NCBI RefSeq assembly: GCF_014640615.1
Contig: NZ_BMHH01000027.1
Location: 1 to 42,974, forward strand
Direction of reading: 5' to 3'
Length of the DNA stretch: 42,974 nucleotides
DNA from: Paramesorhizobium endophyticum
GTDB taxonomy: Bacteria > Pseudomonadota > Alphaproteobacteria > Rhizobiales > Rhizobiaceae
Shown one piece after another: positions 14,760 through 41,505 of the stretch. Each line of letters begins with the position of its first letter. Positions within the stretch are counted from its first letter, which is position 1. Under the pieces are notes generated by a model. It did not search any database and had not been told where the DNA came from. It saw only the letters and a program-made list of their open reading frames with translations. A program made the translations under genes and the position numbers.

Positions 14760-14763
14760 GATC

Positions 14764-25255: not shown

Positions 25256-26167
25256 GTTGTAAAAGATGCTGAAAATATAAATGCTTACCTTGTTCCCAAT
25301 GCGAATGTAATTGTCGATAAACTTTCCAAGCCAATGTCCTCTCTCGCAGAAATGACTTTCGGTAGTAAGCCGGTGGATGGTGGCAATCTCCTTCTTTCGA
25401 GAGCGGAGCTGGACCACCTCTCTCTCAGCAGCTCGGAACGGGTAAAGTTCATCCGGCCAATATTGGGATCAGACGAGTTTATTGGAGGCAAACTTCGCTA
25501 TTGCATCTGGGTTAGAGATGACGATGTGCTTGAGGCATCCAAAATTTCGCGCATACGAGCGCGAATGGATGGTGTGCGCAAAATGAGACTTGCCAGCACC
25601 AAAGTTGCTACGAGGCGAGGAGCAGACTGGCCACACCGTTTTGATGAAAGGCGTCAATCAGGCGACGAACAAACTATCGCAATCGCAGCCATAAGCTCAG
25701 AGAATAGAGATTATCTTCCTTGTGGACCTCTTCCGCTTGGTACGATTATTTCGAATAAATTATTCGCACTTTTTAACGCGCCCCTTTGGAACATGGCGCT
25801 CATTGCTTCGCGCCTGCATTGGGTTTGGATCGGGACTGTTTGCGTACGGATGCGAACGGACTTCAGTTACTCCAACACTCTCGGCTGGAACACCTTTCCT
25901 GTCCCTAAGCTGACCGAAAAGAACAAAGCAGACCTTACCCGCTGCGCAGAAGACATCCTTCTCGCACGCGAGGCGCATTTCCCCGCAACCATCGCCGATC
26001 TTTACGATCCCGAGAAAATGCCCGCAGATTTGCGTGCCGCCCATGATCGCAATGACGAAGTGCTGGAGCGCATCTACATCGGTCGCCGCTTCCGCAATGA
26101 CACCGAACGCCTCGAAAAGCTCTTCGAACTTTATACGAAGATGACCAAGACGAAGGGGGCGGCATGA
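25256..26167 (+). pseudogene. C-terminal remnant of a MmeI-like DNA methyltransferase
   Basis: The frame is open from the IS edge (KDAENINAYLVPNANVIVD), and the conserved block starts KPMSSLAEMTFGSKPVDGG. It continues with IRPILGSDEFIGGKLRYCIWV, LASTKVATRRGADWPHRF, and YSNTLGWNTFPVPKLTE. These are the target-recognition and C-terminal parts of MmeI/YeeA-type class I SAM-dependent DNA methyltransferases. The N-terminal part and the catalytic NPPY-type motif are missing, removed at the IS border. In an intact locus it would methylate host DNA and mark self for the operon. About 277 residues remain from the first ATG at 25334, and whether they are made is unknown. Confidence 0.85.
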
Positions 26168-27581: not shown

Positions 27582-29666
27582 ATGATCCTGAGCAATAACT
27601 ATAAGAATGAGAGCAATAGCATGACCAGCGAAAAACACGTCCCATCCGTTTCCGTCACCTACGCGCAGAATGGTAATTCAACCAAGCCGAACGAGCTTGG
27701 CATGCGGCCCATGCAGGAGGCGGTGTACGAGAAGCGGGGCGAACAATACTTGCTGATCAAATCGCCTCCCGCATCGGGCAAGAGCAGGGCGCTGATGTTC
27801 GTCGCGCTGGACAAGCTCAACAACCAGGGCTGCAAGCAGGCGATTGTCGTTGTGCCGGAAAAATCCATCGGTTCCAGCTTCGCCGACGAGGCGCTGTCGA
27901 AACACGGTTTCTATTGGGATTGGCATGTCTCCCCGAAATGGAACCTTTGCAATGCGCCGGGCGCAGACGGCGGCAAGGTCAATTCCGCGAAGGCGTTTCT
28001 GGAAAGCGACGACAAGGTTCTGGTCTGCACTCATGCCACGTTTCGCTTCGCCGTCGATAAATTCGGCATTGAGGTTTTCGATGACCGGCTGATCGCGGTG
28101 GATGAGTTTCACCACGTTTCCGCCAATCCCGACAACAAGCTTGGTTCGCATCTCGGTCAGCTCATCGGGCGCGGCAAGACCCATATCGTTGCCATGACCG
28201 GCTCATACTTCCGTGGGGACGCAGAACCGGTGCTCATGCCCGAGGACGAAACCAAGTTCGAGCCCGTTACCTACACCTACTATCAGCAGCTCAACGGCTA
28301 TAAATATCTGAAGTCACTCGATATCGGCTACTTCTTCTATGCCGGAGCCTATTCGGATGACATTTTGAAAGTGCTCGACCCTGATGAAAAAACCATCGTC
28401 CATATCCCGTCTGTCAATTCGCGAGAGAGCACCAAGGACAAGATCAGGGAAGTCGAGCATATCATTGAAGAGCTAGGTAGCTGGCAGGGCTCCGATCCGG
28501 CAACTGGCTTTCAACTGGTGAAACGCCCCGATGGCCGCATCCTGAAAATAGCAGATCTGGTCGATCCCGATCATCAGGCGACAATCCAGGCCAGCCTCCG
28601 TTCACCCGAAATGAAAACCAACCGCGATTATGTGGACATCATCATCGCCCTTGGCATGGCCAAAGAAGGCTTTGACTGGATTTGGTGCGAGCACGCCCTC
28701 ACCGTTGGCTATCGCTCCAGCCTAACGGAGGTTGTTCAGATCATTGGCCGCGCGACACGTGATGCCCCTGGCAAAGCCCGCGCGCGTTTCACCAATCTGA
28801 TTGCCGAACCGGATGCGTCCGAGGAGGCAGTAACGGAAGCGATCAACGATACGCTGAAAGCCATTGCGGCGAGCTTGCTCATGGAACAGGTGCTCGCGCC
28901 CCGTTTCAATTTCACGCCGAAGCGCCCGGAAAGCGAGCCGACGCCCGGCTTTGATTATGGCGATGGCGGTTATGATCCGAACAAGTGCAATGTCGGTTTC
29001 AATGAAGAAAGCGGCGAGTTCCAGATCGAGATCAAGGGGCTTGCCGAGCCGAAGAGCAAGGAAGCGCAGCGCATTTGCCAGGAAGACCTGAACGAGGTCA
29101 TCACGGCTTTTGTTCAGGACAAGAGGTCAATTGAACGGGGGCTGTTCGATGAAGAACTGGTGCCGGAAGAGCTGACCCAGGTGCGCCTTGGTAAGATCAT
29201 CAAGGATAAATATCCGGAATTGGACGACGAGGATCAGGAGGCTGTGCGACAGCATGCCATTGCAGCGCTGAACCTGACCCAGCAGGCTAAAGGCGCGCTG
29301 AACCCCCATGGGGAAGCTCCGAAATCCGGCAATACCGCCTTGCTTGACGGCATACGGAAGATCGCCATGGATGTGCGAGAACTCGATATTGACCTGATCG
29401 ACCGGATCAATCCGTTCGGGGAGGCCTATGCCATTCTCGCGAAGGCTATGAATGAAGAGAGCCTCAAGCAGGTGGCTGCCGTCATTTCCGGGAAGAATGT
29501 CAAGTTGACACCCGAAGAGGCCCGCGATCTGGCGCGCCGGGCCGTCAAATTCAAACAGGAGCGCGGGCGTTTGCCATCCATCACCGCCGCTGATGCCTGG
29601 GAACGGAAGCTAGCGGAAGGTGTAGCTTTCCTGGCGCGCATGAAAGCGGAGGCCGCAAATGGCTGA
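27582..29666 (+). CDS. DEAD/DEAH-box helicase of the defence operon
   Basis: 694 residues, superfamily 2. Walker A is SPPASGKSRALM near residue 62-72, the DExH box is VDEFHHVSA near 173, motif III is MTGSYF, and motif VI is QIIGRATRDAPGKAR near 385. A distinctive C-terminal helical part includes KFKQERGRLPSITAADAWE. A similar GR-x-P, acidic, FERL pattern occurs in the N-terminal part of the GIY-YIG protein encoded next, with which it overlaps by 8 bp. A start at 27621 (MTSEKHVPS) is an alternative. It probably translocates on or remodels DNA for the nuclease. It is not a type I or III HsdR by size or domains. Confidence 0.88.
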   Translation: MILSNNYKNESNSMTSEKHVPSVSVTYAQNGNSTKPNELGMRPMQEAVYEKRGEQYLLIKSPPASGKSRALMFVALDKLNNQGCKQAIVVVPEKSIGSSFADEALSKHGFYWDWHVSPKWNLCNAPGADGGKVNSAKAFLESDDKVLVCTHATFRFAVDKFGIEVFDDRLIAVDEFHHVSANPDNKLGSHLGQLIGRGKTHIVAMTGSYFRGDAEPVLMPEDETKFEPVTYTYYQQLNGYKYLKSLDIGYFFYAGAYSDDILKVLDPDEKTIVHIPSVNSRESTKDKIREVEHIIEELGSWQGSDPATGFQLVKRPDGRILKIADLVDPDHQATIQASLRSPEMKTNRDYVDIIIALGMAKEGFDWIWCEHALTVGYRSSLTEVVQIIGRATRDAPGKARARFTNLIAEPDASEEAVTEAINDTLKAIAASLLMEQVLAPRFNFTPKRPESEPTPGFDYGDGGYDPNKCNVGFNEESGEFQIEIKGLAEPKSKEAQRICQEDLNEVITAFVQDKRSIERGLFDEELVPEELTQVRLGKIIKDKYPELDDEDQEAVRQHAIAALNLTQQAKGALNPHGEAPKSGNTALLDGIRKIAMDVRELDIDLIDRINPFGEAYAILAKAMNEESLKQVAAVISGKNVKLTPEEARDLARRAVKFKQERGRLPSITAADAWERKLAEGVAFLARMKAEAANG

Positions 29667-30876
29667 TTTCACCGATGAAGATGATGCTCTGCTTGCTGAA
29701 TTAGGGGTCGAGGTCGAAACCAAGAAAGCGGGCAGCCGCACGCCGCGCGAAGAGCGGATTATCGCAGGCTTTGAAGAAATTCAGCGCTTTGTCGAAGAAC
29801 ATGGCCGCGCGCCACGCCACGGCGAAGACCGCGACATTTTCGAGCGGCTTTATGCCGTTCGGCTGGATCGTATCCGTTCGCTGGAAGAGTGCCGCGCGCT
29901 GGTCGAACCTCTCGATCATCAGGGCTTGCTTGGCGATGAGATTGCCGCCGCTCAGCCCGATATTGACGAAATGGACGATGACGCGCTTCTGGCGGAACTC
30001 GGTATCGAAGCGGAAGCGCCGGAAATCACGACTCTGAAGCATGTTCGCTCAACGGCAGAAAAACGGGCAGCGGAGGATATTGCCAACCGTGAGCGCTGCG
30101 AGGATTTCGAGAAATTCAAGCCACTGTTCGACCAGGTCCAGGCCGATCTGAAAAGCGGCGTGCGCACGACACGGAAATTCGTGAAGGACGCAGGTTTCCT
30201 GAAGGCGGAAATCACGGCAGGTCAGTTTTTCATTCTGGGCGGGCAGACTGCCTATGTCGCGGAAGTCGGCGAACCGATCAAGGCTCCGAATGGCGAGACA
30301 GACGCCCGTTTGCGTGTGATCTATTCCAACGGGACGGAAAGCAATCTGTTGCTACGGTCACTTCAGCGCGCCCTTTACAAGGACGAAGCGGGCCGCCGTA
30401 TCACCGAGCCGAGCGCCGGGCCGCTTTTTGCGGAGGATACCGATGAGGATGATACCGCCAGCGGAACGATCTATGTTCTGCGCAGCAAATCGAACCATGC
30501 TCTCGTGGCCGAGAACCGCGACATCGTGCACAAAATCGGAGTGACCAGCGGCAGCGTCGAAAAGCGCATTGCCAATGCCAAGCTCGATGCCACCTTCTTG
30601 CTAGCGGACGTGGAAATTGTTGCGACCTACGAGCTTTTCAACATCAACCGGGCGAAACTCGAAAACCTGATCCATCGGGTGTTCGAGCCTGCAAAACTGG
30701 AAATCAAGATCAAGGATCGTTTCGGCAATCCCGTTGTGCCGAGAGAATGGTTTTTGGTGCCGCTGTTCGTAGTGGATGAGGTTGTGGAGAGGATCAAGGA
30801 TGGCAGCATAAGCAACTACACCTACAACCCGCAGGGAGCTCGCTTGTCGCTTCGAGGCGATCACGCGGCGGACTGA
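29659..30876 (+). CDS. GIY-YIG nuclease-family protein (T5orf172/MUG113-like)
   Basis: 405 residues. The C-terminal third is a GIY-YIG-like domain: GTIYVLRSKSNHALV, then HKIGVTSGSVEKRIANAK, then NRAKLENLIHRVF, close to the T5orf172 subgroup. The N-terminal part contains the acidic motif DDALLAELG twice (about residues 8-16 and 107-115) and a GRAPRHGEDRDIFERL segment resembling part of the helicase C-terminus. It is probably the cutting subunit of the operon. The start overlaps the helicase stop by 8 bp. Confidence 0.85.
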   Translation: MADFTDEDDALLAELGVEVETKKAGSRTPREERIIAGFEEIQRFVEEHGRAPRHGEDRDIFERLYAVRLDRIRSLEECRALVEPLDHQGLLGDEIAAAQPDIDEMDDDALLAELGIEAEAPEITTLKHVRSTAEKRAAEDIANRERCEDFEKFKPLFDQVQADLKSGVRTTRKFVKDAGFLKAEITAGQFFILGGQTAYVAEVGEPIKAPNGETDARLRVIYSNGTESNLLLRSLQRALYKDEAGRRITEPSAGPLFAEDTDEDDTASGTIYVLRSKSNHALVAENRDIVHKIGVTSGSVEKRIANAKLDATFLLADVEIVATYELFNINRAKLENLIHRVFEPAKLEIKIKDRFGNPVVPREWFLVPLFVVDEVVERIKDGSISNYTYNPQGARLSLRGDHAAD

Positions 30877-30878
30877 AA

Positions 30879-31781
30879 ATGGTCGATCATTCCAAAGAGT
30901 TCACAAAAATTCTGTCGGCTGGTGTCAGGCCTGCGTTACTTGTTGGGAATGGTATTAACCGGTTCAACGGTGATGGCTCCTCCAGCTGGGAAGGATTGTT
31001 AGGTACTCTCGCGACACGGAACGGCCTCAAGCTTTCGGCTACGGACGCAGACGAGATGTCCAATACAGAATTGTTTGACTTGCTGGACCTTACCCGACCA
31101 AAGGATGATCGCAGTACCCTCCAATCTGATTTTTGTGAGCTGATGAGCGGCTGGAAGCCCGCCGAGCACCATCGCACGATTGTCAGGTGGGCACAGCATC
31201 ACCGCGTGCCGCTCCTTACCGTGAATTTTGACGAGAACCTTTCTGCGTCGATCGGTGCAAAGCTGTATCGCGCCGAGCAGAAATTCACGGATTACTATCC
31301 GTGGGCATCTTATTTCTCTGACAGGCAGATCAGAAATCCACGTGATGAGTTTGCGATCTGGCACCCACACGGGATGATGAAATATTCCCGCAGCATCAGG
31401 TTGGGCCTCACTCACTATATGGGATCGGTTCAGCGTGCTCGAACCTGGGTTTACGGCAACGAAGGCTTGCGGGCGTCTGCGAAGAGTGGCGCACAAGAGT
31501 GGCGTGGAAGCAATACTTGGCTCGACATATTCTTTTTTAGTCCGATCCTGATGCTCGGTTTCCGTTTCGGGAAGGACGAAAATTTCTTACGTTGGCTGTT
31601 CCTGGAACGGGCGCGCATCCATAAACTCGTACCCGAATGGGGTGCGCCCAGTTGGTATATAGACGTTAGAAATAAAGGCGGAACACACAGCCGAAGGCCA
31701 TTCTTCGAAGGGCTTGGGATCACGTATCTATCGGTAGGTGATTATCGGGACATATATGAGTCAGATGGCTGGGTAAAATAG
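30879..31781 (+). CDS. SIR2-like domain protein
   Basis: 300 residues. LLVGNGINRFNGDGSSSWEGLL is a SIR2-type Rossmann start in the GNG form seen in defence SIR2 proteins. LLTVNFDENLSAS carries the NFD motif near residue 114, IWHPHGMMKY the catalytic-type His near 162, and ILMLGFRFGKDENFLRWL the closing motif. SIR2 proteins in defence loci usually hydrolyse NAD. It starts 2 bp after the GIY-YIG gene, so it is the last gene of the operon. It is convergent with the GmrSD-like gene, 16 bp apart. Confidence 0.8.
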   Translation: MVDHSKEFTKILSAGVRPALLVGNGINRFNGDGSSSWEGLLGTLATRNGLKLSATDADEMSNTELFDLLDLTRPKDDRSTLQSDFCELMSGWKPAEHHRTIVRWAQHHRVPLLTVNFDENLSASIGAKLYRAEQKFTDYYPWASYFSDRQIRNPRDEFAIWHPHGMMKYSRSIRLGLTHYMGSVQRARTWVYGNEGLRASAKSGAQEWRGSNTWLDIFFFSPILMLGFRFGKDENFLRWLFLERARIHKLVPEWGAPSWYIDVRNKGGTHSRRPFFEGLGITYLSVGDYRDIYESDGWVK

Positions 31782-31797
31782 CCTACCGCCTCACCAC

Positions 31798-33801
31798 CTA
31801 ATCAAGCGCTGCCTTTGCGATCACAGTACTCGGATATGGCCACACTTCTTGGGCTGTTTCGAAAAGCAACTTGCCTCGCGCCTCGATAGTATCCTCGTTC
31901 CAATTCTCGACCTTCGTGATTTCCCGGTTCATCACAAGGAGCGAATGATCTTGCAGGGCCTTGCGCTTGATTTCATATTTTCCGTTGCGGACGCTACTGT
32001 TTAGCGGCTGAGTTAGGATCGTCAGGTTGCCGAATGTATTCAGAAGGCGCTGTCTTCGGACAATTTGGCCGACCCGAGTTTCATCTTCGTCCATCGCAAA
32101 GACTGCCTGATAAGCTTCATCGCTGCTGACGAGGTTACCGTCGCCTAGGGGCCAATGCGCTTTCCACTCAGCCGGGAGGATGTGCTCCACAGAGAGATCT
32201 GTGCTTAAATGTTCAGTTTCATGGAATTTATGACGCTTTTGACGCTCTATTGCTTCCAACACCGCACGGACGCGCAGTGGCGTCAGGCGTTTGCCGTAGA
32301 CAGGCGCGGACAGCCATGCCGCCTCAAATTCGCGGTCTGTCGGGAAGCGCGCGCTTTCCGACGTTTGGGCGATAAGAAAGGCTGACAGTCTTTCGGCGCT
32401 GAAGCCCTTCGCTTCGAGGTGCCTAAGCACCGACAGAAAGAACTTGTTGTAGTTTTTTGTCGTCAGCCCGCAGATGGCGCGCCTTACGATGAATGACAGC
32501 ACCGTATCCAGGCACGTCTGGCGCTCACCGTCACCCATGCCGTCTTCAGCCCATAGCCGGAGGATCAATGGATAAACCGTTGTCACGTCCCATGGACTCA
32601 GCAACCAAGCGAAGTGACCGAGCGGATCATCTAGCTTCTTTTCCAGGAGCCTTCGGTATAGCGCACCGTAGCGCGCGAGGTCCGTGAGTTCCACATCGAC
32701 GGTTTGATAGCCGCCGCCCGGCCGGTCGGCCTGCACCTTTAAGAAGGCCTTGTATTCGCTGAATAGCTTGGAAAGCGTAACCTCTCCAGCGACCTGACCT
32801 GCAATGAAGTTCGCAAGGAAGAATTCGATCCTGGCTTTTTTGTACCGCCCTTGCTTTTCCATCTCGCTCCAGAAGGGAGCTTCAAAATCCTTCCAGTGCT
32901 TTTCAAAGAGCTTCTCAGCCTTTTCTTGCCGGGCATCAGCACGGTGAAAGATGTTGTTGCGTACTAGGTCCGCCGCTAGCAAAGGTTCACCGCGTTCATT
33001 CAGCGTTTCGAAGATAACCTGAGCATCGTCACCCTCTTCGAGTATGATCTCGACAACCTTGAATTCTTCAATCAGCGACTCCCACAGCGCGTCCAGCCGC
33101 AGCTCCATCGCCGCACGATCTTGATCAACGGTTTCCTGTGCCACCTCATCTTCCTCGTCCGGCGCGCCGTCAATCGTTTCGGCAAAATCGTCTTCCAGAT
33201 CGTCGCTCTCAACCGCATGACGAATATGCTCAAAGAAGAATCCATAGGCGCCCAGAAGATTTGGCACGGTGCTATAGTCGTAAATCTTGTCCTTGCCCTT
33301 GTAGAAGTGAGCGCTGTATTTCTTTCGAAGCTCCAGGCGGCCCAGCGTGACAATATCCTGAAACAGGACTCTATCGTATTTCGTTGGCCAGACCTTGAAT
33401 TTTTCCACCTCGGCATCTTCCATGAGATGTTGCTTTTCGTTGAACAAGTAGCCCTCTACCAGCCCAACCGTGTCGTCGAATCCTGCCTGCTTGGCGTAGT
33501 CGCGTGCTGCCGCGAGATACAGTTGGAAGGTAGTCAGGCGCTGCTGCCCATCCACTACCTGGAACGAGGTAACTTGGCGGGAGGATACGCTGCCGCGCGC
33601 TTCTAGAACAACAGCCCCCATGAAGTGGGAAAACCTCCGTTCCCGCCCGTTGAGACGTTCGATGGCTTTGGTGCGCACATCGTTCCAGAAGGGGAGCCAT
33701 TGCTTGTCGCGGGTCCATACATAGTGCCGCTGATAGATCGGAACGCAGAACCGCTGGCGGTTTTCAAGTAGCTGCCGAATGGTAACTGGTCCTGCTTTCA
33801 T
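31798..33801 (-). CDS. GmrSD-like DUF262/DUF1524 restriction nuclease
   Basis: 667 residues. The N-terminal DUF262 (ParB/GmrS-like) has VPIYQRHYVW near residue 19, VVDGQQRLTTFQLY near 82 and VIFETLNERGEPLLAADLVRNN. The C-terminal DUF1524 (GmrD-like HNH) has SVEHILPAEW near 537 with the catalytic His, then NTFGNLTILTQPLNSSVRN and YEIKR. Single-chain fusions of this type are type IV restriction enzymes against modified phage DNA, with NTP hydrolysis by the first domain. A GGGGAGG ribosome site precedes the start. It is a single gene between two other defence operons, divergent from the Argonaute operon. Confidence 0.92.
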   Translation of the reverse strand: MKAGPVTIRQLLENRQRFCVPIYQRHYVWTRDKQWLPFWNDVRTKAIERLNGRERRFSHFMGAVVLEARGSVSSRQVTSFQVVDGQQRLTTFQLYLAAARDYAKQAGFDDTVGLVEGYLFNEKQHLMEDAEVEKFKVWPTKYDRVLFQDIVTLGRLELRKKYSAHFYKGKDKIYDYSTVPNLLGAYGFFFEHIRHAVESDDLEDDFAETIDGAPDEEDEVAQETVDQDRAAMELRLDALWESLIEEFKVVEIILEEGDDAQVIFETLNERGEPLLAADLVRNNIFHRADARQEKAEKLFEKHWKDFEAPFWSEMEKQGRYKKARIEFFLANFIAGQVAGEVTLSKLFSEYKAFLKVQADRPGGGYQTVDVELTDLARYGALYRRLLEKKLDDPLGHFAWLLSPWDVTTVYPLILRLWAEDGMGDGERQTCLDTVLSFIVRRAICGLTTKNYNKFFLSVLRHLEAKGFSAERLSAFLIAQTSESARFPTDREFEAAWLSAPVYGKRLTPLRVRAVLEAIERQKRHKFHETEHLSTDLSVEHILPAEWKAHWPLGDGNLVSSDEAYQAVFAMDEDETRVGQIVRRQRLLNTFGNLTILTQPLNSSVRNGKYEIKRKALQDHSLLVMNREITKVENWNEDTIEARGKLLFETAQEVWPYPSTVIAKAALD

Positions 33802-34042
33802 GGTTCCTCCCCTTAATCATTTGACAAGCTTAGGTTCTGATCAGATTTAATCAATCAAAACCATTGCTTGCCCTGATCTTATCCACGCAATCAGACTGTG
33901 GCGTGCCTGCCGAACTGGGCTGGCCGGCGTGGTAGCAGCTGCCGCATTGTGGTGGCGTGTTGTTTTAGTGAAAGTGAGGATAACTCCAGCTTGGCGCATT
34001 AAATGTTCTTGAGTTGTTCTCGCGATTAGTTACGTTGGTTGT
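33802..34042. promoter_or_regulatory. Divergent control region between GmrSD-like and Argonaute operons
   Basis: 241 bp with no gene. The left half is AT-rich with ttgacaa near 33831 and tgatcagatttaatcaatcaaa, and the right half has ttgagt before the SIR2-APAZ start. Both operons must be transcribed from here. No ribosome site of strength precedes 34043, which suggests low expression of the Argonaute partner. Confidence 0.4.
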
Positions 34043-36598
34043 ATGAGCCACAAAACTAGCGTTTCGATTCTTGCCTCGCTGTTGAGGCCCGACAACGACG
34101 CTCGCCCCACATTTTTGTTGGGGGCGGGGGCCTCATTTTCCTCCGGTGTTCCTCTCGCGGCGGAAAGCGTCCGTCGCCTTGCCAAGCACGTCTATGCCGA
34201 GCGTGAGCTTGGAGGCAGGTCTCTTCCCGAGCGCATTAAACCCTCGGAATGGACCAGTTGGCTGCATCAGCAGGAGTGGTTTATTCACGGAGATGATCAT
34301 CTCGCCGAGAATTTTCCGCTCGTTGTCGAGAATTTGCTCAAGCCGGAAGCCTATAGACGGCGGTTGTTGTTGGAGCTCGTCAGCCTAAAGGGCGAACTCG
34401 GTTCAGGTTACCGCGCCCTAGCTGATCTCGTGCTGCGCGGGCTTGCCGGAACGGTGATGACCACCAATTTCGATTTGTGCCTGCCGATGGCGCTCGGGGA
34501 GAAGCACCCTCATATAAGGCATGTTGCGGAAATCAATCGAAGGCCAGACGACTTCAACGAATTTAACCCCTTCGCGAGGGCTCAGATTGTCTGGCTTCAC
34601 GGCAAGGCAGAACAGTATACCGACCGAAACCTTGTTCATGAGACGCAAACTCTGGATAGCGCTCTCCTGGAAAAGCTGCATCCGCTCCTTGAGTTCTCAC
34701 CCTTGATCGTCATGGGCTATCGAGGTTACGAGCCGTCGATCATGTCGTCGCTCCTCGGAGCCGAAGATCAGAAATTCCGGCACGGTATATTCTGGTGTGT
34801 GAGAGCTGGTGAGCAGCTTCACCCCAATGTTCAGGCGTTGTCGGACCGCTTGGGAAGTAATTTTCAAAAACTGGGGATCAAAGGCTTTGATGAAATTCTG
34901 TCCGACTTGAATGTGGAGCTTGCCGGTGTCCAGCGGTTCGTCGCCCTTCCTGTGGCCGAAGCCGGAGACAGCTTTGATGACCGGATATGTGACGGGGCTG
35001 TCTGGGCTGATGTCGATGCGGACCTGGCGCTGGTAACCCTCCGGCAATATTGCGAGAAACTTGAGCGTGGTAGTCTCACATCGGATCAGCTCAAGCCACT
35101 GATGCGCGAGATCGGCCTATTGGCCCAGAAAAAGGATGCTTCCGAACAGCCGACGAATGCCTGCATCCTGCTGTTTGGTCGAAATCCTGAACGCTTTTTT
35201 CCGCACTCTGTGATTTCCGCGACTATTTCCGGAAAGAGGCGCATCGTTTTCGAAGGCAATCTCGTCTCTCAATATCGTGCATTGCTTGAGTGGCTGGAAA
35301 GCAAAGATGTCAATCCCATTATCAAGGTTAAAGGCAAGCAAAAGCATTATACGCGCGCCGCATACCCTGAACGCGCTCTGATCGAAATGCTGGTCAACAT
35401 GATTGTTCACCGGGATTATGAGATGGTTGCGCCGAGTCAAATCGACGTGGACGGAAATTCTGCTGTGTGCTTTTCCAACCCTGGTGGAATGTCTGCGCAG
35501 TCGAAAAATCGACTTGAGACAAATGATGAAGGTGCGTTCTCTCCCGTGCCGGAGTTCAGCGATCTCCGAAACAGAACCCTATGCGATGTATTCTTTGGCA
35601 TAAGCGCCATGGAACGCGCGGGTACCGGGTTATCCGACACCCTCGATCTTTGTTTCGAAGCTGGCGGCTCTGCGACATTCGCTTTCCCGCCGGGAGAGGA
35701 TGGATTCCTTGCCAAGCTTTTCAGGCCGGGCGCTTCTGCGGGATCAGCCTCCGTGTCGATCGATACCCGCCCGGTGGGTACTTATACGATAAACTCGCTG
35801 ATGTTCTCCGCTTTGCCTGAGACGATTACGCGCCTAAAGATCAGAGAGGGCGTCGATCTGGGGCGGGACGTTCCGCTGCATGAAGCCGGTACATTCGTCT
35901 ATGAGCGCCGCAGCGGCGATTTGTGGACGTTCTTGCCTGCCCCTATCGCCAACCTTTTATTCGCGAATGTCCTTTTGAAAGAGACGACAGTCATTTCGCT
36001 GACAGAGGCGGATTCAGACATTGTGCTGCACCGGAAAATTGCTTGGCTGATACGCAAGCATTTTGAGCAGCATATTCGGTCCTTCGAGAAGGACGGTCTT
36101 GTCGTTGAAAAGACGAAGAAGGGCCATCCGGCGAAGCGGGCCTATTTCCAGAGTAGGAATAAAGACAACAGAACCATTGTTTACGACACTCCTCGGCGGA
36201 GGGGTATCAGACGCGATGTTGTCAAAAAGCGCGGGGATGACGGAAAGCCGTGGTTTGAATGCGAAGGTTTCGGCTACGAGATCGTGTGCCTAGGCAATGG
36301 CTGGGGCGTGCGGATTAAACCGTTTTATATGTTCACGAAGCAGGACGGCATCACGCCGTTGCCAGGATATATGCGGACAAGCCGTGCTACGCGTCGAATT
36401 CGCTTCGATAGAAATACTAATGTCGAGAGTGATCTCGTCTTCTGGGGGCGGTTTCTATCGCAAGGGGGGCAAACGATAAATATTGGTGATCAAAACGTGC
36501 CTGATCTGGTTCTCGAAGGCAGTTTTTACACCCAGGATATAACAGAAGAAGGGCTCGTGGATCATGACGATTCAAATGAAAATCGACGTACTGCATGA
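34043..36598 (+). CDS. SIR2-GHKL-APAZ protein, partner of short Argonaute
   Basis: 851 residues with three parts. SIR2 (about 1-290) has TFLLGAGASFSSGVPLA near 25, MTTNFDLCL near 140 and VWLHGK near 183, with the NAD-site Asn and catalytic His present, and VMGYRGYEPSIM. The middle (about 330-560) has ACILLFGRNPERFFP, then EMLVNMIVHRDYE near 443 and CFSNPGGM. After that come RNRTL and ERAGTGLSDTLDLCF near 523. This is the GHKL/HATPase_c_4-type domain of RecG-like and Schlafen-associated proteins. The C-terminal APAZ region (about 580-851) has EIVCLGNGWGVRIKPFYMFT and SDLVFWGRFL. In SPARSA, SIR2-APAZ destroys NAD when Argonaute senses invading nucleic acid. The middle domain is an unusual addition. 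It overlaps the Argonaute gene by 35 bp. Confidence 0.88.
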   Translation: MSHKTSVSILASLLRPDNDARPTFLLGAGASFSSGVPLAAESVRRLAKHVYAERELGGRSLPERIKPSEWTSWLHQQEWFIHGDDHLAENFPLVVENLLKPEAYRRRLLLELVSLKGELGSGYRALADLVLRGLAGTVMTTNFDLCLPMALGEKHPHIRHVAEINRRPDDFNEFNPFARAQIVWLHGKAEQYTDRNLVHETQTLDSALLEKLHPLLEFSPLIVMGYRGYEPSIMSSLLGAEDQKFRHGIFWCVRAGEQLHPNVQALSDRLGSNFQKLGIKGFDEILSDLNVELAGVQRFVALPVAEAGDSFDDRICDGAVWADVDADLALVTLRQYCEKLERGSLTSDQLKPLMREIGLLAQKKDASEQPTNACILLFGRNPERFFPHSVISATISGKRRIVFEGNLVSQYRALLEWLESKDVNPIIKVKGKQKHYTRAAYPERALIEMLVNMIVHRDYEMVAPSQIDVDGNSAVCFSNPGGMSAQSKNRLETNDEGAFSPVPEFSDLRNRTLCDVFFGISAMERAGTGLSDTLDLCFEAGGSATFAFPPGEDGFLAKLFRPGASAGSASVSIDTRPVGTYTINSLMFSALPETITRLKIREGVDLGRDVPLHEAGTFVYERRSGDLWTFLPAPIANLLFANVLLKETTVISLTEADSDIVLHRKIAWLIRKHFEQHIRSFEKDGLVVEKTKKGHPAKRAYFQSRNKDNRTIVYDTPRRRGIRRDVVKKRGDDGKPWFECEGFGYEIVCLGNGWGVRIKPFYMFTKQDGITPLPGYMRTSRATRRIRFDRNTNVESDLVFWGRFLSQGGQTINIGDQNVPDLVLEGSFYTQDITEEGLVDHDDSNENRRTA

Positions 36599-38066
36599 GC
36601 CCCGGATCGAGTTTTCAAATGCGAAAACCGACATCGATCCACGCCGGGGATTGCCAAAGAATGGGCCATCCGACAACACCGGTCTTCGGCAGATAAAGCT
36701 GGGCTTTGTTGGCCTATCGGAGGATATTGACGCTGCCGTTGCATGGCTGTCGCGATTTGAGACTTTCATTCCGGCAAAGGAGAACAACTCCGCGCGTTTC
36801 CGGAATTGGCCAGGGCTCGAAAAGGCTCTGAACGCGAAGTTCATCATGGAGAAGCGGCACAGACGGATCGTTTCTTCCTCGAAATATGGTCAGCTTTTCC
36901 GTGAGGCACAAAAGGGCCAGAAATTCGGTGAACTGGTCGAGCTCTTCGAATACGAGATTAGTAGTCTGTACGGGGACGAGGCTCCTGATTGCATAATCCT
37001 GTGCATCAAGCCTGAACTTGGTGATTTGAGAGTAATGAACCCCGGCCTGTCACCAGAAGAACGCCGGGCGCTGGAGTTCTTGCGCGCGGAGGAAGAAAGC
37101 AATCAGCTTGCGTTGTTTCAGCCCTCGCCTGACGAGCTTGAAGCTGCAAGCGCTCTCTATACAATGGCTGACGATTTGCTATTCCGAACGTTCTACCGTG
37201 CCCTTAAAGCTAAGATCATGGCTGATAGTCAGGCTGTCCCGATCCAGGTCGTTAGACGGGACACAATCGAACGGCCAGACGATAAGGGGCAAAGTCAGGC
37301 TACTCGTGTCTGGAACGCCGCCGTTTCCATCTATTATAAATCCAAGGGCATCCCGTGGAGGCCTGCCGACCTGCCGAAGAATGTCTGCTTTGTCGGGATT
37401 TCCTTTCACCACATGAAAAAGCGTGGCGGGCATCTGGTCTATGCCAGTGTGGCGCAGGCTTATTCGACAGATATCGAACCTTACGCGATCAAAGGTGCGA
37501 GCATCGATCATGACCAGAAGCGTGATCGCCAACCTTACCTGAACGAAGCGCAAGCGCGTCAACTGCTTGAGCAAATACTCGAAGAGTATGAGCGGCGAGC
37601 CGGCGTGACGCCCGACCGCGTGGTGATTCATAAGACCACAAACTATCAGCCAGAAGAAGAACGCGGCTTTCGGACGGCCGCTAAAGATCGGGTCGCCAAC
37701 TGTGATCTGATCTGGCTGCGCAATACCTCGTTTCGGGTCGTCCGTAAAGGAACCGAAGAACCCTGGCGCGGCACATTGTGTTCGCTGGATGGTCATTCCT
37801 ATCTGTTCACGAGCGGCTACATCCCGTGGTGGAACGAGTTCCCAGGAATGCACATTCCTGCACCTCTGGAAATCGGCTCTTGCGGTGAAACCGACATTCG
37901 GGCACGCGCGGAGGAAATCCTGGCATTGACCAAAATGAACTGGAATTCCAGCGATGGGATTACCCGTTTCCCGATCACGCTGCTCTTTGCACGGCGTGTA
38001 GGGGAACTGATGTGCGAGTTGTCGGATAACGCGACACCCAATCCATCTTATCGCTTCTATATATAA
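36564..38066 (+). CDS. Short prokaryotic Argonaute (MID-PIWI)
   Basis: 500 residues, the size of short Argonautes lacking N and PAZ domains. The MID part includes ADSQAVPIQVVRRDTIER, and WNAAVSIYYKSKGIPWRP precedes PIWI. The PIWI part has NVCFVGISFHHMK, VYASVAQAYSTD, RVVIHKTTNY, YLFTSGYIPWWNEFPG and the C-terminal MNWNSSDGITRFPITLLFARRVGELM. The first catalytic Asp position reads FVGIS, so slicing is not expected, as in other short Argonautes. It should use a guide to recognise invader nucleic acid and activate the SIR2 partner. An alternative start at 36576 (MKIDVLHEP) reduces the overlap to 23 bp. Confidence 0.92.
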   Translation: MTIQMKIDVLHEPRIEFSNAKTDIDPRRGLPKNGPSDNTGLRQIKLGFVGLSEDIDAAVAWLSRFETFIPAKENNSARFRNWPGLEKALNAKFIMEKRHRRIVSSSKYGQLFREAQKGQKFGELVELFEYEISSLYGDEAPDCIILCIKPELGDLRVMNPGLSPEERRALEFLRAEEESNQLALFQPSPDELEAASALYTMADDLLFRTFYRALKAKIMADSQAVPIQVVRRDTIERPDDKGQSQATRVWNAAVSIYYKSKGIPWRPADLPKNVCFVGISFHHMKKRGGHLVYASVAQAYSTDIEPYAIKGASIDHDQKRDRQPYLNEAQARQLLEQILEEYERRAGVTPDRVVIHKTTNYQPEEERGFRTAAKDRVANCDLIWLRNTSFRVVRKGTEEPWRGTLCSLDGHSYLFTSGYIPWWNEFPGMHIPAPLEIGSCGETDIRARAEEILALTKMNWNSSDGITRFPITLLFARRVGELMCELSDNATPNPSYRFYI

Positions 38067-38445
38067 AACTGGTTTTCTGACTCTGTGGATTAGGTGTTTT
38101 ACCAAATGCCGCATACTGTGACAGACAGGACCGGGCTGTTGTGAACCGAGCCAGTGGTCTCGGCCATTCGGCTTCCATCCCTTGCGCTTGACTGGCCGCA
38201 TTTCGCGGCCCTTTTGCTGAGCAGGGTTCTTTTACGCGCTCTGCGATATTACCGCTTTCTGTTTGGAGGCTTGCAGCCCCGTCCTCCGTCAAGACCAAGC
38301 CCTTTGGGCAAAAGCATCCGGGCCGTGGCTCGGCGTTCGCCTGCACCCGCACCACCCCGGACGTTTTTGGTCTGGACGGTTTCCCCCTCTCTTCGCCAGA
38401 GGGGCAGATCGGTTGCATGAGCAACCCGATCAAAGGAAAACGGAA
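38067..38445 (+). promoter_or_regulatory. Structured leader of the interrupted ardC gene
   Basis: About 380 bp without a gene, rich in stems: ggccgc-atttc-gcggcc near 38191-38207 and cctct-cttcgcc-agagg near 38391-38405 are examples. A similarly stem-rich leader precedes ardA. Such leaders in front of antirestriction genes fit promoters used early after entry of single-stranded element DNA (inference). Confidence 0.4.
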
Positions 38446-38604
38446 ATGAAAACAGATGTCTACAAACAAGTAACTGACAAGATTATTGCCGATCTGGAAA
38501 GAGGCGAGCTGACCTGGCTGAAGCCTTGGAGTGCTGGCAATATGGATGGACGGATAACCCTACGATTCCGCAGCGAACTTTCAGTATACTTTGTCTGGCC
38601 TTAA
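38446..38604 (+). pseudogene. ardC: ardC 5' fragment, interrupted by recombinase module
   Basis: The first about 38 residues (MKTDVYKQVTDKIIADLERG, then LTWLKPWSAGNMDGRIT) match the N-terminus of ArdC-type antirestriction proteins. Homology ends abruptly near 38560, and the frame stops 14 codons later. The rest of ardC, including the metalloprotease-like domain, is not in the window. The break lies about 55 bp from the 3' end of the serine recombinase gene, as expected for an attachment site next to an integrase. The start has a ggaaaacgg ribosome site. Confidence 0.8.
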
Positions 38605-38615
38605 TTTTAATGTTG

Positions 38616-40283
38616 CTAGATTGCTACTTCAAGCGAATGTCGGTATCGGTGGTTGCGAGCCCCCGCAACCATCTTTACTTGCGACCCCGTAGCGCCCGCT
38701 GCGGGGTTTTTGCTTTTAACCGAAAGCGCGAGAATCCCGGCAAGATCGCCCCGAACATCGATCTCGATCCTGCCCTCCACCGGCGTCAGCACAATGTCAT
38801 CCACCAGCGAGCGGATCGCATCCGCCGCCTCCATACGCTTCTCTTCGGAATTATGCTGAAGTGTCTCGTAGAGCTGCTGGACGCGCTTGCGATATTGCAG
38901 CGCCATGTTCGGATGCAGCAAGGGAGGCGGCTCGTCAGCCGTCTCAAGGAAGGTCTTCAACTCCGCCTTGCGCAGCTTGAGCTGATCGCCGCGCTCCTTC
39001 ACGGCCTCGATTGAAATGGCCTCCTTCAGATAGAGGTCCATCAGCCGTCCTTCCTCACGACCGATCTTCTCTATCTCCGCCTGCGCGGCGTCGATATTGG
39101 CGCGGGCTTCCATTCGTAGCCGGTTCATCGCGCGCGTATAGGCGCCACAAAACTCTGCGAAGATCTCCGGATCGAGCATCCGATTGCGCAACGCATTGAG
39201 CACACGCGTCTCCAACTCCTCACGGCGGATATTGACCCGGTTGTCGCAGGTGCCCTTGTTGCGCGCCGTCGAACAGCCGATCAGCGCCGCCGAGATTGCC
39301 GAATAGCCACCTCCGCAGCAGGCGCATTTGGTCAGGCCGGAGAACAGGTATTTAGGACGACGGCGGTAATTGATGGCCGCAACATCGGCATGGCCATTCT
39401 TATCGCGTTCGATCTTGTTCTCTGCCTGTCGCTTCTTCACGGCTTGCCAAAGTTCTTCATCAATAATGCGGAGTTCCGGTGCTTCCTGGATCACCCATTC
39501 CGATTCCGGATTCGGCCGCGCCTGCCGCTTACCGGTGTCCGGGTCCTTTATGAAGCGCTGACGGTTCCAGACGATCTTTCCGACATACACCTCATTGTTG
39601 AGGATGCCGTTCCCACGCTTCGGATTGCCGTTGATCGTGCTGAAGCCCCAATCACCGCCGGTAGGGGCGGGGACGCCTTCCTTGTTCAAAGCCGCGGCGA
39701 TGGTCTTGGCTGATTTGCCGGCGGCATAGTCGCGAAAGATGCGGCGGACGATTTCGGCCTCTCGCTCCTTGATGTTCCGGTCGCCGCGGATCGGTTCGCC
39801 GTTGGCGTCGAACTTTTTGACAATATCGTAGCCATAGGAATTACCGCCGCCGGATTTGCCCGCCTCGACGCGGCCACGCTGGCCGCGTCGCGTCTTGTCG
39901 GCGAGATCTTGGAGGAACAGTGCATTCATCGTCCCCTTGAGGCCGACATGGAGATGCGTGACCTCCCCCTCGGACAAGGTGACAATCTTAACGTCCGAAT
40001 AGGACATGCGTTTGAACAGCCCGGCGATGTCCTCCTGGTCGCGCGAGAGGCGGTCCATTGCTTCCGCAAGGATCAGATCAAAGCGACCCCGACCAGCATC
40101 CGAGATCAGGGCTTGAATGCCCGGTCGCAGCAGGGAAGCGCCCGAGATCGCATGATCGGTATATTCCTCGACAATCTGCCAGCCTTGTTTCTCGGCATGA
40201 AGCCGGCACATGCGAAGCTGATCGGCGATCGAGGCGTCGCGCTGATTGTCGGAGGAGTAGCGGGCGTAGATCGCAACCTTCAT
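38616..40283 (-). CDS. Large serine recombinase (complete)
   Basis: 555 residues. The resolvase domain is MKVAIYARYSSDNQRDASI with the catalytic serine, and has LAEAMDRLSRDQED and HVGLKGTMNALFLQDLA. The recombinase domain is about residues 160-290, the zinc ribbon is KCACCGGGYS ... CSTARNKGTCDN, and a coiled coil (NIDAAQAEIEKIGREEGRL) is followed by a conserved C-terminus (LVDDIVLTPVEGRIEIDVRGDLAGILAL). The start at 40283 matches the homologue at 1372 and follows an AAGGAG 12 bp upstream; longer upstream frames were rejected. Its 3' end adjoins the ardC break, so it probably integrated its module there. Confidence 0.94.
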   Translation of the reverse strand: MKVAIYARYSSDNQRDASIADQLRMCRLHAEKQGWQIVEEYTDHAISGASLLRPGIQALISDAGRGRFDLILAEAMDRLSRDQEDIAGLFKRMSYSDVKIVTLSEGEVTHLHVGLKGTMNALFLQDLADKTRRGQRGRVEAGKSGGGNSYGYDIVKKFDANGEPIRGDRNIKEREAEIVRRIFRDYAAGKSAKTIAAALNKEGVPAPTGGDWGFSTINGNPKRGNGILNNEVYVGKIVWNRQRFIKDPDTGKRQARPNPESEWVIQEAPELRIIDEELWQAVKKRQAENKIERDKNGHADVAAINYRRRPKYLFSGLTKCACCGGGYSAISAALIGCSTARNKGTCDNRVNIRREELETRVLNALRNRMLDPEIFAEFCGAYTRAMNRLRMEARANIDAAQAEIEKIGREEGRLMDLYLKEAISIEAVKERGDQLKLRKAELKTFLETADEPPPLLHPNMALQYRKRVQQLYETLQHNSEEKRMEAADAIRSLVDDIVLTPVEGRIEIDVRGDLAGILALSVKSKNPAAGATGSQVKMVAGARNHRYRHSLEVAI

Positions 40284-40296
40284 CGGGCATGACTCC

Positions 40297-40524
40297 TTAC
40301 CGGGAGCGGCCTGGCCCCCGCTTGGTTCTTTGTGCAGCAAAGTTCTCCCGCGCCAGTTGCTCGCCGAGCAGCCGGGCAAGCCGCACGAGGCGCGGGTCCG
40401 GGTTGCCGCGCGGCGTGAAGGTCAGTTCCGGCTCGTCGGGCAGCATCGCTGCGAGCAGCTCTTCGCGCTCGCTTCGCGTAATCACTCTCTTGGTTTTGCG
40501 TGCTTCCGGGGTCATGCCCGGCAT
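40297..40524 (-). CDS. Small recombinase-associated protein
   Basis: 75 residues, or 72 from the second Met. LVRLARLLGEQLARENFAAQ is shared with the 65-residue protein at 2202-2399. A basic tail (QRTKRGPGRSR) and a basic start (RKTKRVITRSEREELLAAML) suggest nucleic-acid contact. It lies 13 bp before the recombinase and is probably co-transcribed with it. I infer an accessory or directionality factor. No characterised family was recognised. Confidence 0.65.
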   Translation of the reverse strand: MPGMTPEARKTKRVITRSEREELLAAMLPDEPELTFTPRGNPDPRLVRLARLLGEQLARENFAAQRTKRGPGRSR

Positions 40525-40720
40525 AATTGACGCGACACGTCATGTAAGCAACGGAATTCAAAGGAGAATATCCGGCGGCGTTTAACACGCCATCGGTCGC
40601 TACCGCTCGCTCTGGCGAGGTATAGCGTATCACAGCATACAGAAAATACCTGTGGTCCGTGGGATCGCGCCTCGGCCTCACCGGAATTTTGGATGTGCTT
40701 ATCATCAGATCTGTCCTCGC

Positions 40721-40760
40721 TTGCCAAAATTACAAATCCGGACTATATATCTGGATATAG
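40721..40760 (+). promoter_or_regulatory. vapBC promoter with overlapping operator
   Basis: TTGCCA (40721-40726) and TATATA (40744-40749) are separated by exactly 17 bp. The inverted repeat ctatat (40743-40748) / atatag (40755-40760) overlaps the -10 box, as expected for autorepression by the antitoxin. The antitoxin start is 15 bp further on. Confidence 0.65.
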
Positions 40761-40774
40761 CATGGAGGCAGGTC

Positions 40775-41077
40775 ATGGGCAATACCGCACAGAAGAGAGC
40801 GATCAAGAATTATCGCGCGCGCCTGACGCAGCGCGGCTTCAAGCGCTTTGAAGTCATGGCGCTCGAATCCGACCGCGAACTGATCCGATCTCTCGCGCGT
40901 CAGCTGGCCGAGGAAGGACCGGAATCGGAGCAGGCGCGGCAAGCCGTGAAAACCCTCGTCGCAGGCGAGCCGCCCAAGCCCGGTGGCATTCTCGCCGCTT
41001 TGCGCCGCTCGCCGTTGGTTGGCGCTGACCTCGATCTCTCCCGCCCGCGTGAAGAGGGGCGCAAGGTCGATCTGTGA
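40775..41077 (+). CDS. vapB: VapB-like antitoxin
   Basis: 100 residues. GFKRFEVMALESDRELIRSLARQLAEEG is a ribbon-helix-helix-like DNA-binding part, and GGILAALRRSPLVGADLDLSRPREEGRKVDL is the typical C-terminal toxin-binding tail. It overlaps vapC by 4 bp. A GGAGG ribosome site lies upstream, and the promoter at 40721-40760 carries a dyad for autoregulation. Confidence 0.85.
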   Translation: MGNTAQKRAIKNYRARLTQRGFKRFEVMALESDRELIRSLARQLAEEGPESEQARQAVKTLVAGEPPKPGGILAALRRSPLVGADLDLSRPREEGRKVDL

Positions 41078-41505
41078 CGCGCTATCTTCTCGACACCAAC
41101 ATAATCAGTAACGTCATCAAGCCGCAACCGTCGGAATCACTCCTTGCCTGGATGGCTGCGCAGCGCGATGAGGATCTGTTCATTACCTCGCTGACAGTTG
41201 CGGAAATCCGACGCGGCATTCTCGAAAAGCCGCGTGGGAAGAAAAGAGATGCTCTCGAGGCTTGGTTTGCCGGGCCGGAAGGGCCGCAGGCGCTGTTCGC
41301 GGGACGCGTCCTCGTCTTCGATGACAAGGCTGGGTTGATCTGGGCACGGTTGATGGCGGAGGGGAAGATTGCCGGCCGACCGCGCAGTGCGCTCGATATG
41401 ATCATCGCCGCCGTCGCCGGAGCCAATGACTGTGTCGTCGTCACGGATAACGAGAAGGATTTTGCCGGGCTTCAGATCATCAATCCAATGCGGGCCGCAA
41501 CGTGA
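41074..41505 (+). CDS. vapC: VapC PIN-domain toxin ribonuclease
   Basis: 143 residues with a GTG start. The PIN acidic residues are D in YLLDTNIISNV, E in TVAEIRRGI, D in SALDMIIAAVA and D in VVVTDNEKDF. VapC toxins cut tRNA or rRNA to arrest growth. With VapB it stabilises the inserted recombinase module. Length and motifs are complete. Confidence 0.93.
   Translation: MTRYLLDTNIISNVIKPQPSESLLAWMAAQRDEDLFITSLTVAEIRRGILEKPRGKKRDALEAWFAGPEGPQALFAGRVLVFDDKAGLIWARLMAEGKIAGRPRSALDMIIAAVAGANDCVVVTDNEKDFAGLQIINPMRAAT

What the first reader, a model, noticed from the sequence alone, without database searches (positions are those of the whole stretch)
34043..38066. Short Argonaute system whose partner is a three-part SIR2-GHKL-APAZ protein
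Seen: SIR2 motifs (GAGAS, TTNFD, LHG), a middle block with EMLVNMIVHRDYE, CFSNPGGM and ERAGTGLSD, and a C-terminal APAZ block, all in one 851-residue frame overlapping a short MID-PIWI Argonaute. Known: SPARSA systems use a two-part SIR2-APAZ of about 500-600 residues with a short Argonaute and deplete NAD on sensing invaders. Inference: the inserted HATPase_c_4-like domain could make activation ATP-dependent, gate the NADase, or add a second sensing step. I have a vague memory of RecG-like domains being noted near Argonautes, but know of no characterised system of this architecture.
Basis: partly seen in the sequence, partly recalled or inferred. Interest (0 to 1): 0.88.

Follow-up and report, generated by a model that had tools for sequence, protein, structure and literature searches.

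The report
SIR2-GHKL-APAZ partner of short Argonaute
A bacterial two-gene immune system pairs a short Argonaute sensor with a partner protein that joins an NAD-destroying-type domain, an ATPase-like middle domain and an Argonaute-binding domain; the layout has been listed before, but what the middle domain does is an open question.

Summary
Gene 1 (34043-36598, 851 aa) has three folded parts: SIR2 (1-300), a middle module (about 312-565) and APAZ (566-840). It overlaps a short Argonaute gene (36564-38066) by 35 nt. The middle module is neither SIR2 nor APAZ: its own AlphaFold model (pLDDT 93.2) matches DIP2311 (PDB 3lmm), then, more weakly, GHKL kinases. Of 70 related loci, 63 carry the Argonaute directly downstream. 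SIR2 Asn/His and ten middle-domain motif residues are invariant in 51 of 51.

Two corrections. [quoted passage not shown] And it is not canonical SPARSA: APAZ and Argonaute are nearest SPARHA/SPARDA. It does not look like a histidine kinase.

Best guess: invader-triggered NADase, with the GHKL-like module in the effector-APAZ linker controlling assembly. Nucleotide binding is uncertain: the usual GHKL G1 aspartate is absent in 51 of 51. New member of a catalogued kind for which nine searches of the held library showed no experiment.

The parts
34043..36598 (+). Gene 1: SIR2-GHKL-APAZ protein, 851 aa
   Evidence: ORF; PADLOC PDLC02402 8.6e-138 over residues 9-812 and PDLC02418 'SIR2-Kinase' 1.8e-80, best stretch 155-399; AF2 model pLDDT 84.9, pTM 0.61
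34043..34942 (+). SIR2 domain (residues 1-300), N142 and H186 invariant
   Evidence: Pfam SIR2_2 in 51 of 51; Geobacter SPARSA SIR2 6.6e-13 at residues 21-287; N142/H186 in 51 of 51
34964..35746 (+). Middle module (modelled as residues 308-568), HATPase_c_4/DIP2311-like GHKL fold
   Evidence: AF2 pLDDT 93.2, pTM 0.90; Foldseek 3lmm_A E 9.3e-13, TM 0.68, then histidine kinases/BCKDK at E 1e-4 to 1e-3, TM about 0.3; A4 profile hits 3lmm 4e-10
35738..36595 (+). APAZ domain (residues 566-851), SPARHA/SPARDA type
   Evidence: A2 profile vs PDB: 9om4 8.2e-35, DREN-APAZ 9jsb 1.1e-21; Foldseek of the whole model: 9om4_A, TM 0.73 by target length (Foldseek prints no ranges)
36564..38066 (+). Gene 2: short Argonaute, MID-PIWI, 500 aa
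   Evidence: PADLOC pAgo_I 2.5e-140; A3 profile vs SPARHA Argonaute 6.1e-101
36564..36598 (+). 35-nt gene overlap, possibly translational coupling
   Evidence: 35 nt is the commonest overlap, 11 of 65 loci, then 4 nt (8), 11 nt (8), 8 nt (6), with longest-ORF starts
33871..38066 (.). Cassette shared at 93% DNA identity with Neorhizobium petrolearium (L038) and, on to 38671, with Brucella gallinifaecis (L037)

Best explanation
A short-Argonaute immune system whose Argonaute and APAZ are of the SPARDA/SPARHA kind, with the nuclease effector replaced by a SIR2 NADase-type domain plus a GHKL-fold module. Argonaute and APAZ together hold a guide and bind matching invader DNA (inferred from SPARHA/SPARDA/SPARSA homology). 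Binding drives oligomerisation, probably filament-like (inferred). That assembles the SIR2 domains into active NADases, the cell loses NAD and stops growing (inferred from the intact Asn/His and from solved relatives). The middle module sits where SPARDA has its length-critical bridging loop between effector and APAZ; I propose it is a regulated dimerisation clamp that decides whether SIR2 domains can assemble, possibly in response to a bound nucleotide. Shown here: domain make-up, fold, conservation, selection, linkage, lineage. Not shown: any activity. Sub-claims: NADase output about 0.75; middle module gates or builds the assembly about 0.45; it does so by binding a nucleotide about 0.3.
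For: Confident fold of the middle module and of the three-part chain. SIR2 N142/H186 in 51 of 51; the same two positions are named as the catalytic residues of Geobacter SPARSA (PMC10781750, passages). Middle residues E448, N452, H456, R457, R509, N510, G527, G529, L530, D532 in 51 of 51. dN/dS 0.062, 0.033 and 0.027 in the middle domain, much like SIR2 (0.046, 0.056, 0.182) and APAZ (0.035, 0.054, 0.052). 63 of 70 loci have the Argonaute directly downstream; among 534 flanking ORFs no family recurs in more than 5 of 65 loci, so two genes look sufficient. In SPARDA, deleting or extending the bridging loop between effector and APAZ abolishes activity and effector domains tetramerise on a filament (PMC12205087, passages).
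Against: The GHKL G1 position is Asn (30) or Ser (21) in 51 of 51, never Asp, so ordinary ATP binding is doubtful. Matches to GHKL kinases other than 3lmm are partial (TM about 0.3). Inter-domain placement is uncertain (pTM 0.61). I found no activity, guide or target data for this family. The SIR2 tree gives no special link to SPARSA SIR2, so NADase activity is argued from the motif and fold only.
Confidence: 0.5

Rival explanations
1. Double effector: the middle module is a second output (a kinase or ATPase acting on another target), fired together with the NADase, as the NAR 2023 authors suggest for two-effector proteins.
For: [quoted passage not shown] Foldseek places histidine and BCK/PDH kinases next after 3lmm.
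Against: No HisKA match in 51 of 51 at E <= 0.01; no His conserved in 40 or more of 51 in residues 312-444; stand-alone relatives scanned carry AlbA_2 + HATPase_c_4, not HisKA (5 of the 6 proteins; the sixth, L007, is a SIR2 protein); G1 Asp absent.
Confidence: 0.12
2. Structural spacer: the middle module is a folded linker/dimeriser without ligand, there to present SIR2 on an Argonaute/APAZ assembly.
For: Lies between effector and APAZ, where length matters in SPARDA; G1 Asp absent in 51 of 51.
Against: Ten residues in the N-box, RN and G2 motifs are invariant in 51 of 51, in proteins down to 27% identical to the window's, more than a spacer should need.
Confidence: 0.22
3. Second sensor: the middle module recognises an additional invader or stress signal (other than a nucleotide) and licenses the complex.
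For: The same module occurs in stand-alone proteins behind an AlbA_2 domain, one of them with a winged helix (L073), so it can serve other N-terminal domains.
Against: No ligand or partner identified; no recurrent third gene (top family 5 of 65 loci).
Confidence: 0.1
4. Canonical SPARSA with an insertion.
For: SIR2 matches SPARSA SIR2.
Against: APAZ and Argonaute are nearer SPARHA/SPARDA than SPARSA; SIR2 of this family is a group of its own.
Confidence: 0.05

Closest known systems
PADLOC PDLC02402 / PDLC02418 (Aga_SIR2-PNTD1-PNTD2; Aga_SIR2-Kinase-PNTD1-PNTD2)
   Same: Both match 51 of 51 aligned members at E <= 1e-20. That 'Kinase' means the middle module is my reading of the name.
   Different: Detection models only; a histidine-kinase reading is not borne out (no HisKA).
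'Double-effector' short pAgo with SIR2, histidine kinase and APAZ (PMC10810196)
   Same: Same set of parts as in the passage read.
   Different: Named in one sentence of the passages I saw; the paper's experiments are on a DUF4365 system. Middle domain here is DIP2311/HATPase_c_4-like.
Ryazansky og_40 and APAZ group IIb SIR2 proteins (PMC6299218)
   Same: [quoted passage not shown] 13 of 225 group IIb APAZ proteins have SIR2. That these are this family is inferred; I did not see the accession lists.
   Different: No AlbA_2/Schlafen match in 51 of 51 at E <= 0.01; only the part that follows AlbA_2 in stand-alone proteins matches.
SPARHA (PDB 9om4) and SPARDA (9jsb, 9qbp)
   Same: Nearest solved APAZ and Argonaute by profile.
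   Different: Effector is a nuclease there; SIR2 plus GHKL-like module here.
SPARSA (PDB 8in8, 8jkz, 8y80; Geobacter)
   Same: SIR2 domain with catalytic Asn/His.
   Different: Two-part partner; APAZ not matched by the family profile at E 0.01.
DIP2311 (PDB 3lmm)
   Same: Middle-module fold, TM 0.68 over 266 columns; profile match 4e-10.
   Different: No SIR2 or APAZ part matched in it by the family profile (only positions 433-561).

Membership tests
SPARSA | SIR2 domain with catalytic Asn and His | tested here: met
   N142, H186 in 51 of 51
SPARSA | SPARSA-type APAZ | tested here: not met
   Family profile matches SPARSA chains only at SIR2 (15-305), APAZ matches SPARHA/SPARDA; family APAZ model hits 0 of 5 two-part SIR2 partners (L182-L186, one of them fused to Argonaute) even at E 10, but 9 of 9 nuclease partners (L170-L178; 4e-8 to 1e-30)
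SPARSA | Argonaute grouping with two-part-SIR2 systems | tested here: not met
   Five two-part SIR2 Argonautes are apart at 100/100, with a long-branch warning; PDB scores SPARHA 6.1e-101 vs SPARSA 1.6e-45
SPARSA | NAD loss on guide/target recognition | not testable with these tools
   needs biochemistry
Nuclease-type short pAgo (SPARDA/SPARHA) | APAZ of that type | tested here: met
Nuclease-type short pAgo (SPARDA/SPARHA) | Argonaute nested in that type | tested here: inconclusive
   Nearest by score (SPARHA 6.1e-101, SPARDA 1.7e-83, but SPARTA 1.8e-79 close behind); in the tree a group of its own (92/66) beside nuclease and TIR systems
Nuclease-type short pAgo (SPARDA/SPARHA) | nuclease effector domain | tested here: not met
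   only SIR2_2 and HATPase_c_4 matched in the 51 members at E <= 0.01
Short pAgo | MID-PIWI only, no PAZ | tested here: met
   500 aa, matched along its length (5-500) by the short-pAgo model pAgo_I
Short pAgo | PIWI without catalytic residues | tested here: inconclusive
   No Asp seen at two positions judged by recalled motifs; no catalytically active Argonaute was in the alignment
SIR2-histidine kinase-APAZ double effector | SIR2 + GHKL-type + APAZ, PADLOC model | tested here: met
   51 of 51
SIR2-histidine kinase-APAZ double effector | real histidine kinase (HisKA, phospho-acceptor His) | tested here: not met
   no HisKA in 51 of 51; no His conserved in 40 or more of 51 in 312-444
HATPase_c_4 / DIP2311-like | profile and fold | tested here: met
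   45 of 51 at E <= 0.01; 3lmm by profile and fold; window protein alone is below Pfam's cut-off
GHKL ATPase | N-box Glu/Asn and G2 GxGL (motifs recalled) | tested here: met
   51 of 51
GHKL ATPase | G1 box Asp (DxGxG, recalled) | tested here: not met
   Asn 30, Ser 21 of 51
GHKL ATPase | ATP binding or hydrolysis | not testable with these tools
   needs biochemistry

The most novel reading that the evidence does not exclude
A two-key Argonaute immune system: invader DNA found by Argonaute is one key, and the nucleotide (or nucleotide-derived) state read by the GHKL-like module is the other; only both together let SIR2 domains assemble on an Argonaute filament and burn NAD. SIR2 would stand where AlbA_2 stands in stand-alone relatives, so the module would be a portable switch shared by several kinds of protein.
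Probability: 0.25. Interest if true: 0.78.

Novelty: new member of a known kind. Interest (0 to 1): 0.5.

Why it matters
The layout has been listed since 2018 without, in the nine searches of the held library, any experiment. The results here make it testable: they replace the labels 'histidine kinase' and 'Schlafen' by a specific fold with named invariant residues, show an NADase-type effector on SPARDA/SPARHA-type APAZ and Argonaute (so effectors are swapped between lineages), and give 61 intact homologues to choose from. If the module gates activation, it would be an extra checkpoint on a suicidal enzyme and a handle on HATPase_c_4 proteins at large, for which I found no functional paper.

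Tried and rejected
Rejected: middle segment as a SIR2 or APAZ extension (own fold); as a true histidine kinase; as a Schlafen/AlbA_2 domain (no PF04326 in 51 of 51 at E <= 0.01); as canonical SPARSA; as a one-off fusion or sequencing artefact (61 of 70 loci hold gene 1 as one continuous profile match with the Argonaute next to it; L049 and L096 hold gene 1 in two pieces; 7 loci are partial or lack a whole Argonaute, four of them, L059, L101, L104, L106, at contig ends); a third recurrent gene (top family in 5 of 65 loci).

Led nowhere: papers on DIP2311/HATPase_c_4 function (3 papers listed, none on the point by title or abstract start); NCBIfam gave no family for gene 1; VIA-align was not available. 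The G1 motif in stand-alone relatives was read in only 4 rows, with a pattern that itself required Pro-Gly, so it cannot show an Asp-type G1 and says little.

Selection effects: the 70 loci were found with patterns from two SIR2 motifs of the six-member alignment A1, so two-part relatives with other SIR2 motifs could be missed. A2 used 50 of the 70 loci plus the window; left out were near-copies or close kin (L037, L038, L070, L072, L074, L075, L083, L090, L093, L094, L099), broken (L049, L096) and partial (L059, L097, L100, L101, L104, L105, L106). A3 used 35 of the 63 Argonautes plus the window. The Argonaute tree used 19 of the 63 plus the window and 16 of the 20 regions fetched (left out: L179 broken, L187 fragments, L188 and L189 other Argonautes); one further genome with weak matches (G399) was not fetched. 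The SIR2 tree used 14 three-part, 6 two-part and 14 other SIR2 rows chosen by hand.
Full report
What is there. The window holds two overlapping genes on the + strand: an 851-residue protein at 34043-36598 and a 500-residue short Argonaute at 36564-38066. Pfam on the single window protein is weak (SIR2_2 6e-5; HATPase_c_4 0.0016, both under the curated cut-offs), but PADLOC matches nearly the whole length (PDLC02402, 8.6e-138, residues 9-812) and the Argonaute (pAgo_I, 2.5e-140). phmmer against the PDB finds Geobacter SPARSA at residues 21-287 (6.6e-13) and the SPARHA HNH protein at 728-830 (0.00069).

It is a family. One scan of a collection with one genome per species (84,980 species) gave 70 loci. 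In 63 of 70 an Argonaute ORF lies directly downstream; in 61 of these gene 1 is one intact ORF with one continuous profile match (L049 and L096 have it in two pieces); the other 7 are partial or lack a whole Argonaute, four of them at contig ends. By record titles and the tree's taxonomy they come from Pseudomonadota, Acidobacteriota, Bacteroidota, Planctomycetota and Candidatus Poribacteria; some are metagenome bins, and one bin is titled Mycobacterium (L049). Identities of the 50 aligned loci to the window fall into two groups: 46-70% (21 proteins, 841-860 aa) and 27-31% (29 proteins, 894-962 aa). In a sample of 385 genomes of the class, 5 including the window's own hold a near full-length match. 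The host genome shows no other match to gene 1 or the middle module at E <= 0.001. Of 38 viral-contig loci, one, L107, holds a whole pair; most others match at SIR2 only.

Fold. AlphaFold2 on a 51-row alignment gives pLDDT 84.9 and pTM 0.61. Foldseek lists SPARSA, SPARHA, SPARDA, SPARTA and DIP2311 (3lmm) for the whole model, without ranges. The middle segment alone is predicted with pLDDT 93.2 and pTM 0.90; its best PDB match is 3lmm (E 9.3e-13, TM 0.68, 266 columns), and the next are histidine kinases and branched-chain ketoacid dehydrogenase kinases, i.e. the GHKL fold, as partial matches (E 1e-4 to 1e-3, TM about 0.3). A profile of the middle segment also finds 3lmm (4e-10). Stand-alone AlbA_2 + HATPase_c_4 proteins match only with the part after AlbA_2, so in this family SIR2 stands where AlbA_2 stands in them.

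Conservation. Invariant in 51 of 51: SIR2 N142 and H186; middle E448, N452, H456, R457, R509, N510, G527, G529, L530, D532, plus others such as D312, Y336, G405, Q410, N424, K430. The motif residues fit GHKL N-box and G2 motifs (recalled). The G1 position is Asn in 30 and Ser in 21, never Asp. No HisKA was matched in 51 of 51 and no His is conserved in 40 or more of 51 in residues 312-444. dN/dS in the middle domain is 0.062, 0.033 and 0.027 in three close comparisons, resting on 3-5 non-synonymous changes each; SIR2 gives 0.046, 0.056, 0.182 and APAZ 0.035, 0.054, 0.052. So the middle domain is held about as tightly as the others.

Lineage. With the family profile against the PDB, the APAZ region matches SPARHA (8.2e-35) and SPARDA (1.1e-21, 5.6e-17), while SPARSA proteins are matched only at SIR2 (2e-30) and no SPARTA chain appears at E 0.01. 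The Argonaute profile ranks SPARHA 6.1e-101, SPARDA 1.7e-83, SPARTA 1.8e-79, SPARSA 1.6e-45. Twenty of 398 genomes of the phylum, the window's own included, hold a pAgo_I match. In the 20 regions fetched the partner was SMEK-APAZ in 4, DUF4365-APAZ in 5, two-part SIR2-APAZ in 5 (one fused to Argonaute), TIR in 1 scanned (L180; L181 is called TIR from its close Argonaute, its partner was not scanned) and unassigned in 4 (L179, L187, L188, L189); the middle-module profile hit none of the 20. The family's APAZ model hit 9 of 9 nuclease partners, the TIR partner L180 weakly (0.0054) and 0 of 5 two-part SIR2 partners. In the Argonaute tree the two-part SIR2 systems are apart at 100/100 (with a long-branch warning); the three-part Argonautes form one group with modest support, 92/66, beside nuclease and TIR systems. 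The SIR2 domains of this family are a group of their own, 100/100, not nested in SPARSA SIR2. So an NADase-type effector sits on SPARDA/SPARHA-type APAZ; for the Argonaute a place nearer to nuclease than to TIR systems is likely but not firm. This agrees with Ryazansky 2018, where 13 of 225 group IIb APAZ proteins, otherwise the DUF4365 group, have SIR2 (section 11 read).

What is already known. Ryazansky 2018 (PMC6299218; passages and sections 11 and 12 read) lists og_40 as SIR2_1 fused with Schlafen among APAZ proteins. PMC10810196 (passages and introduction read; [quoted passage not shown] PADLOC has a 'SIR2-Kinase' model that matches 51 of 51. I found no experiment on this type in nine library searches, judged from listings and the passages opened; the library lacks most subscription papers and preprints, so this is not proof of absence. 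Makarova 2009 (PMC2743648, passages) describes the Sir2 and APAZ parts; the search there for Schlafen, RecG and COG2865 found nothing.

How it most likely works. Shown here: anatomy, fold, conservation, selection, two-gene linkage (534 flanking ORFs, no family in more than 5 of 65 loci) and lineage. Inferred: Argonaute-APAZ binds guide and invader DNA; oligomerisation activates SIR2; NAD falls; growth stops. SPARTA and SPARSA are reported to activate by tetramerising, and SPARDA by forming filaments with a bridging loop whose length is critical (PMC12205087 passages). The middle module lies in that linker position, which is why I favour control of assembly over a second output. Whether it binds a nucleotide is open: the N-box and G2 speak for it, the absent G1 aspartate against.

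Verdict. A real, conserved and catalogued short-Argonaute type for which I found no experiment.

Noticed in passing
window 38237-38386; L037 5683-5831 and 10195-10341: In L037 the cassette is flanked by 149-bp direct repeats (87% identical); the window has a copy on the right and no repeat pair of its own in 30001-41000. The copy overlaps the start of ORF 38263-38604, which looks (recalled) like the start of an ArdC-type antirestriction gene.
   Followed up: partly
window 27582-30876; L037, L073, L074, L090: Three ORF families (one helicase-like, one like the T5orf172 gene, one methylase-like by recalled motif) recur together upstream in 4 of 65 loci, two Alphaproteobacteria and two Pontibacter, although the Argonaute systems there are distantly related. 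In L037 this stretch is 94% identical to window 27621-30803.
   Followed up: partly
L073 and L074 3990-5558 (-): A stand-alone AlbA_2 + HATPase_c_4 + winged-helix protein sits beside the three-part system in both Pontibacter genomes (domains scanned in L073 only).
   Followed up: partly
window 31798-33801 (-): GmrSD-type restriction enzyme next to the cassette (Pfam 2.1e-35 and 6.4e-26).
   Followed up: no
window 30879-31781 (+): A 300-aa protein with a weak SIR2_2 match (0.0024) and no PADLOC hit; possible further defence gene.
   Followed up: no
window 25334-26167 (+): This ORF holds only the target-recognition and C-terminal parts of an MmeI-like enzyme.
   Followed up: no
window 11338-17860, 38616-40379: Replication initiator RPA, ParA-like ATPase, SLT transglycosylase, DUF3363 relaxase and a serine recombinase: the window looks like a mobile element.
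   Followed up: partly
window 40652-41505 (+): PIN-domain protein with a small upstream gene, perhaps a toxin-antitoxin pair.
   Followed up: no
L037 vs L038 gene 1: Synonymous divergence differs along gene 1 (dS 0.024 in SIR2, 0.183 in the middle, 0.132 in APAZ), suggesting recombination between cassettes.
   Followed up: no
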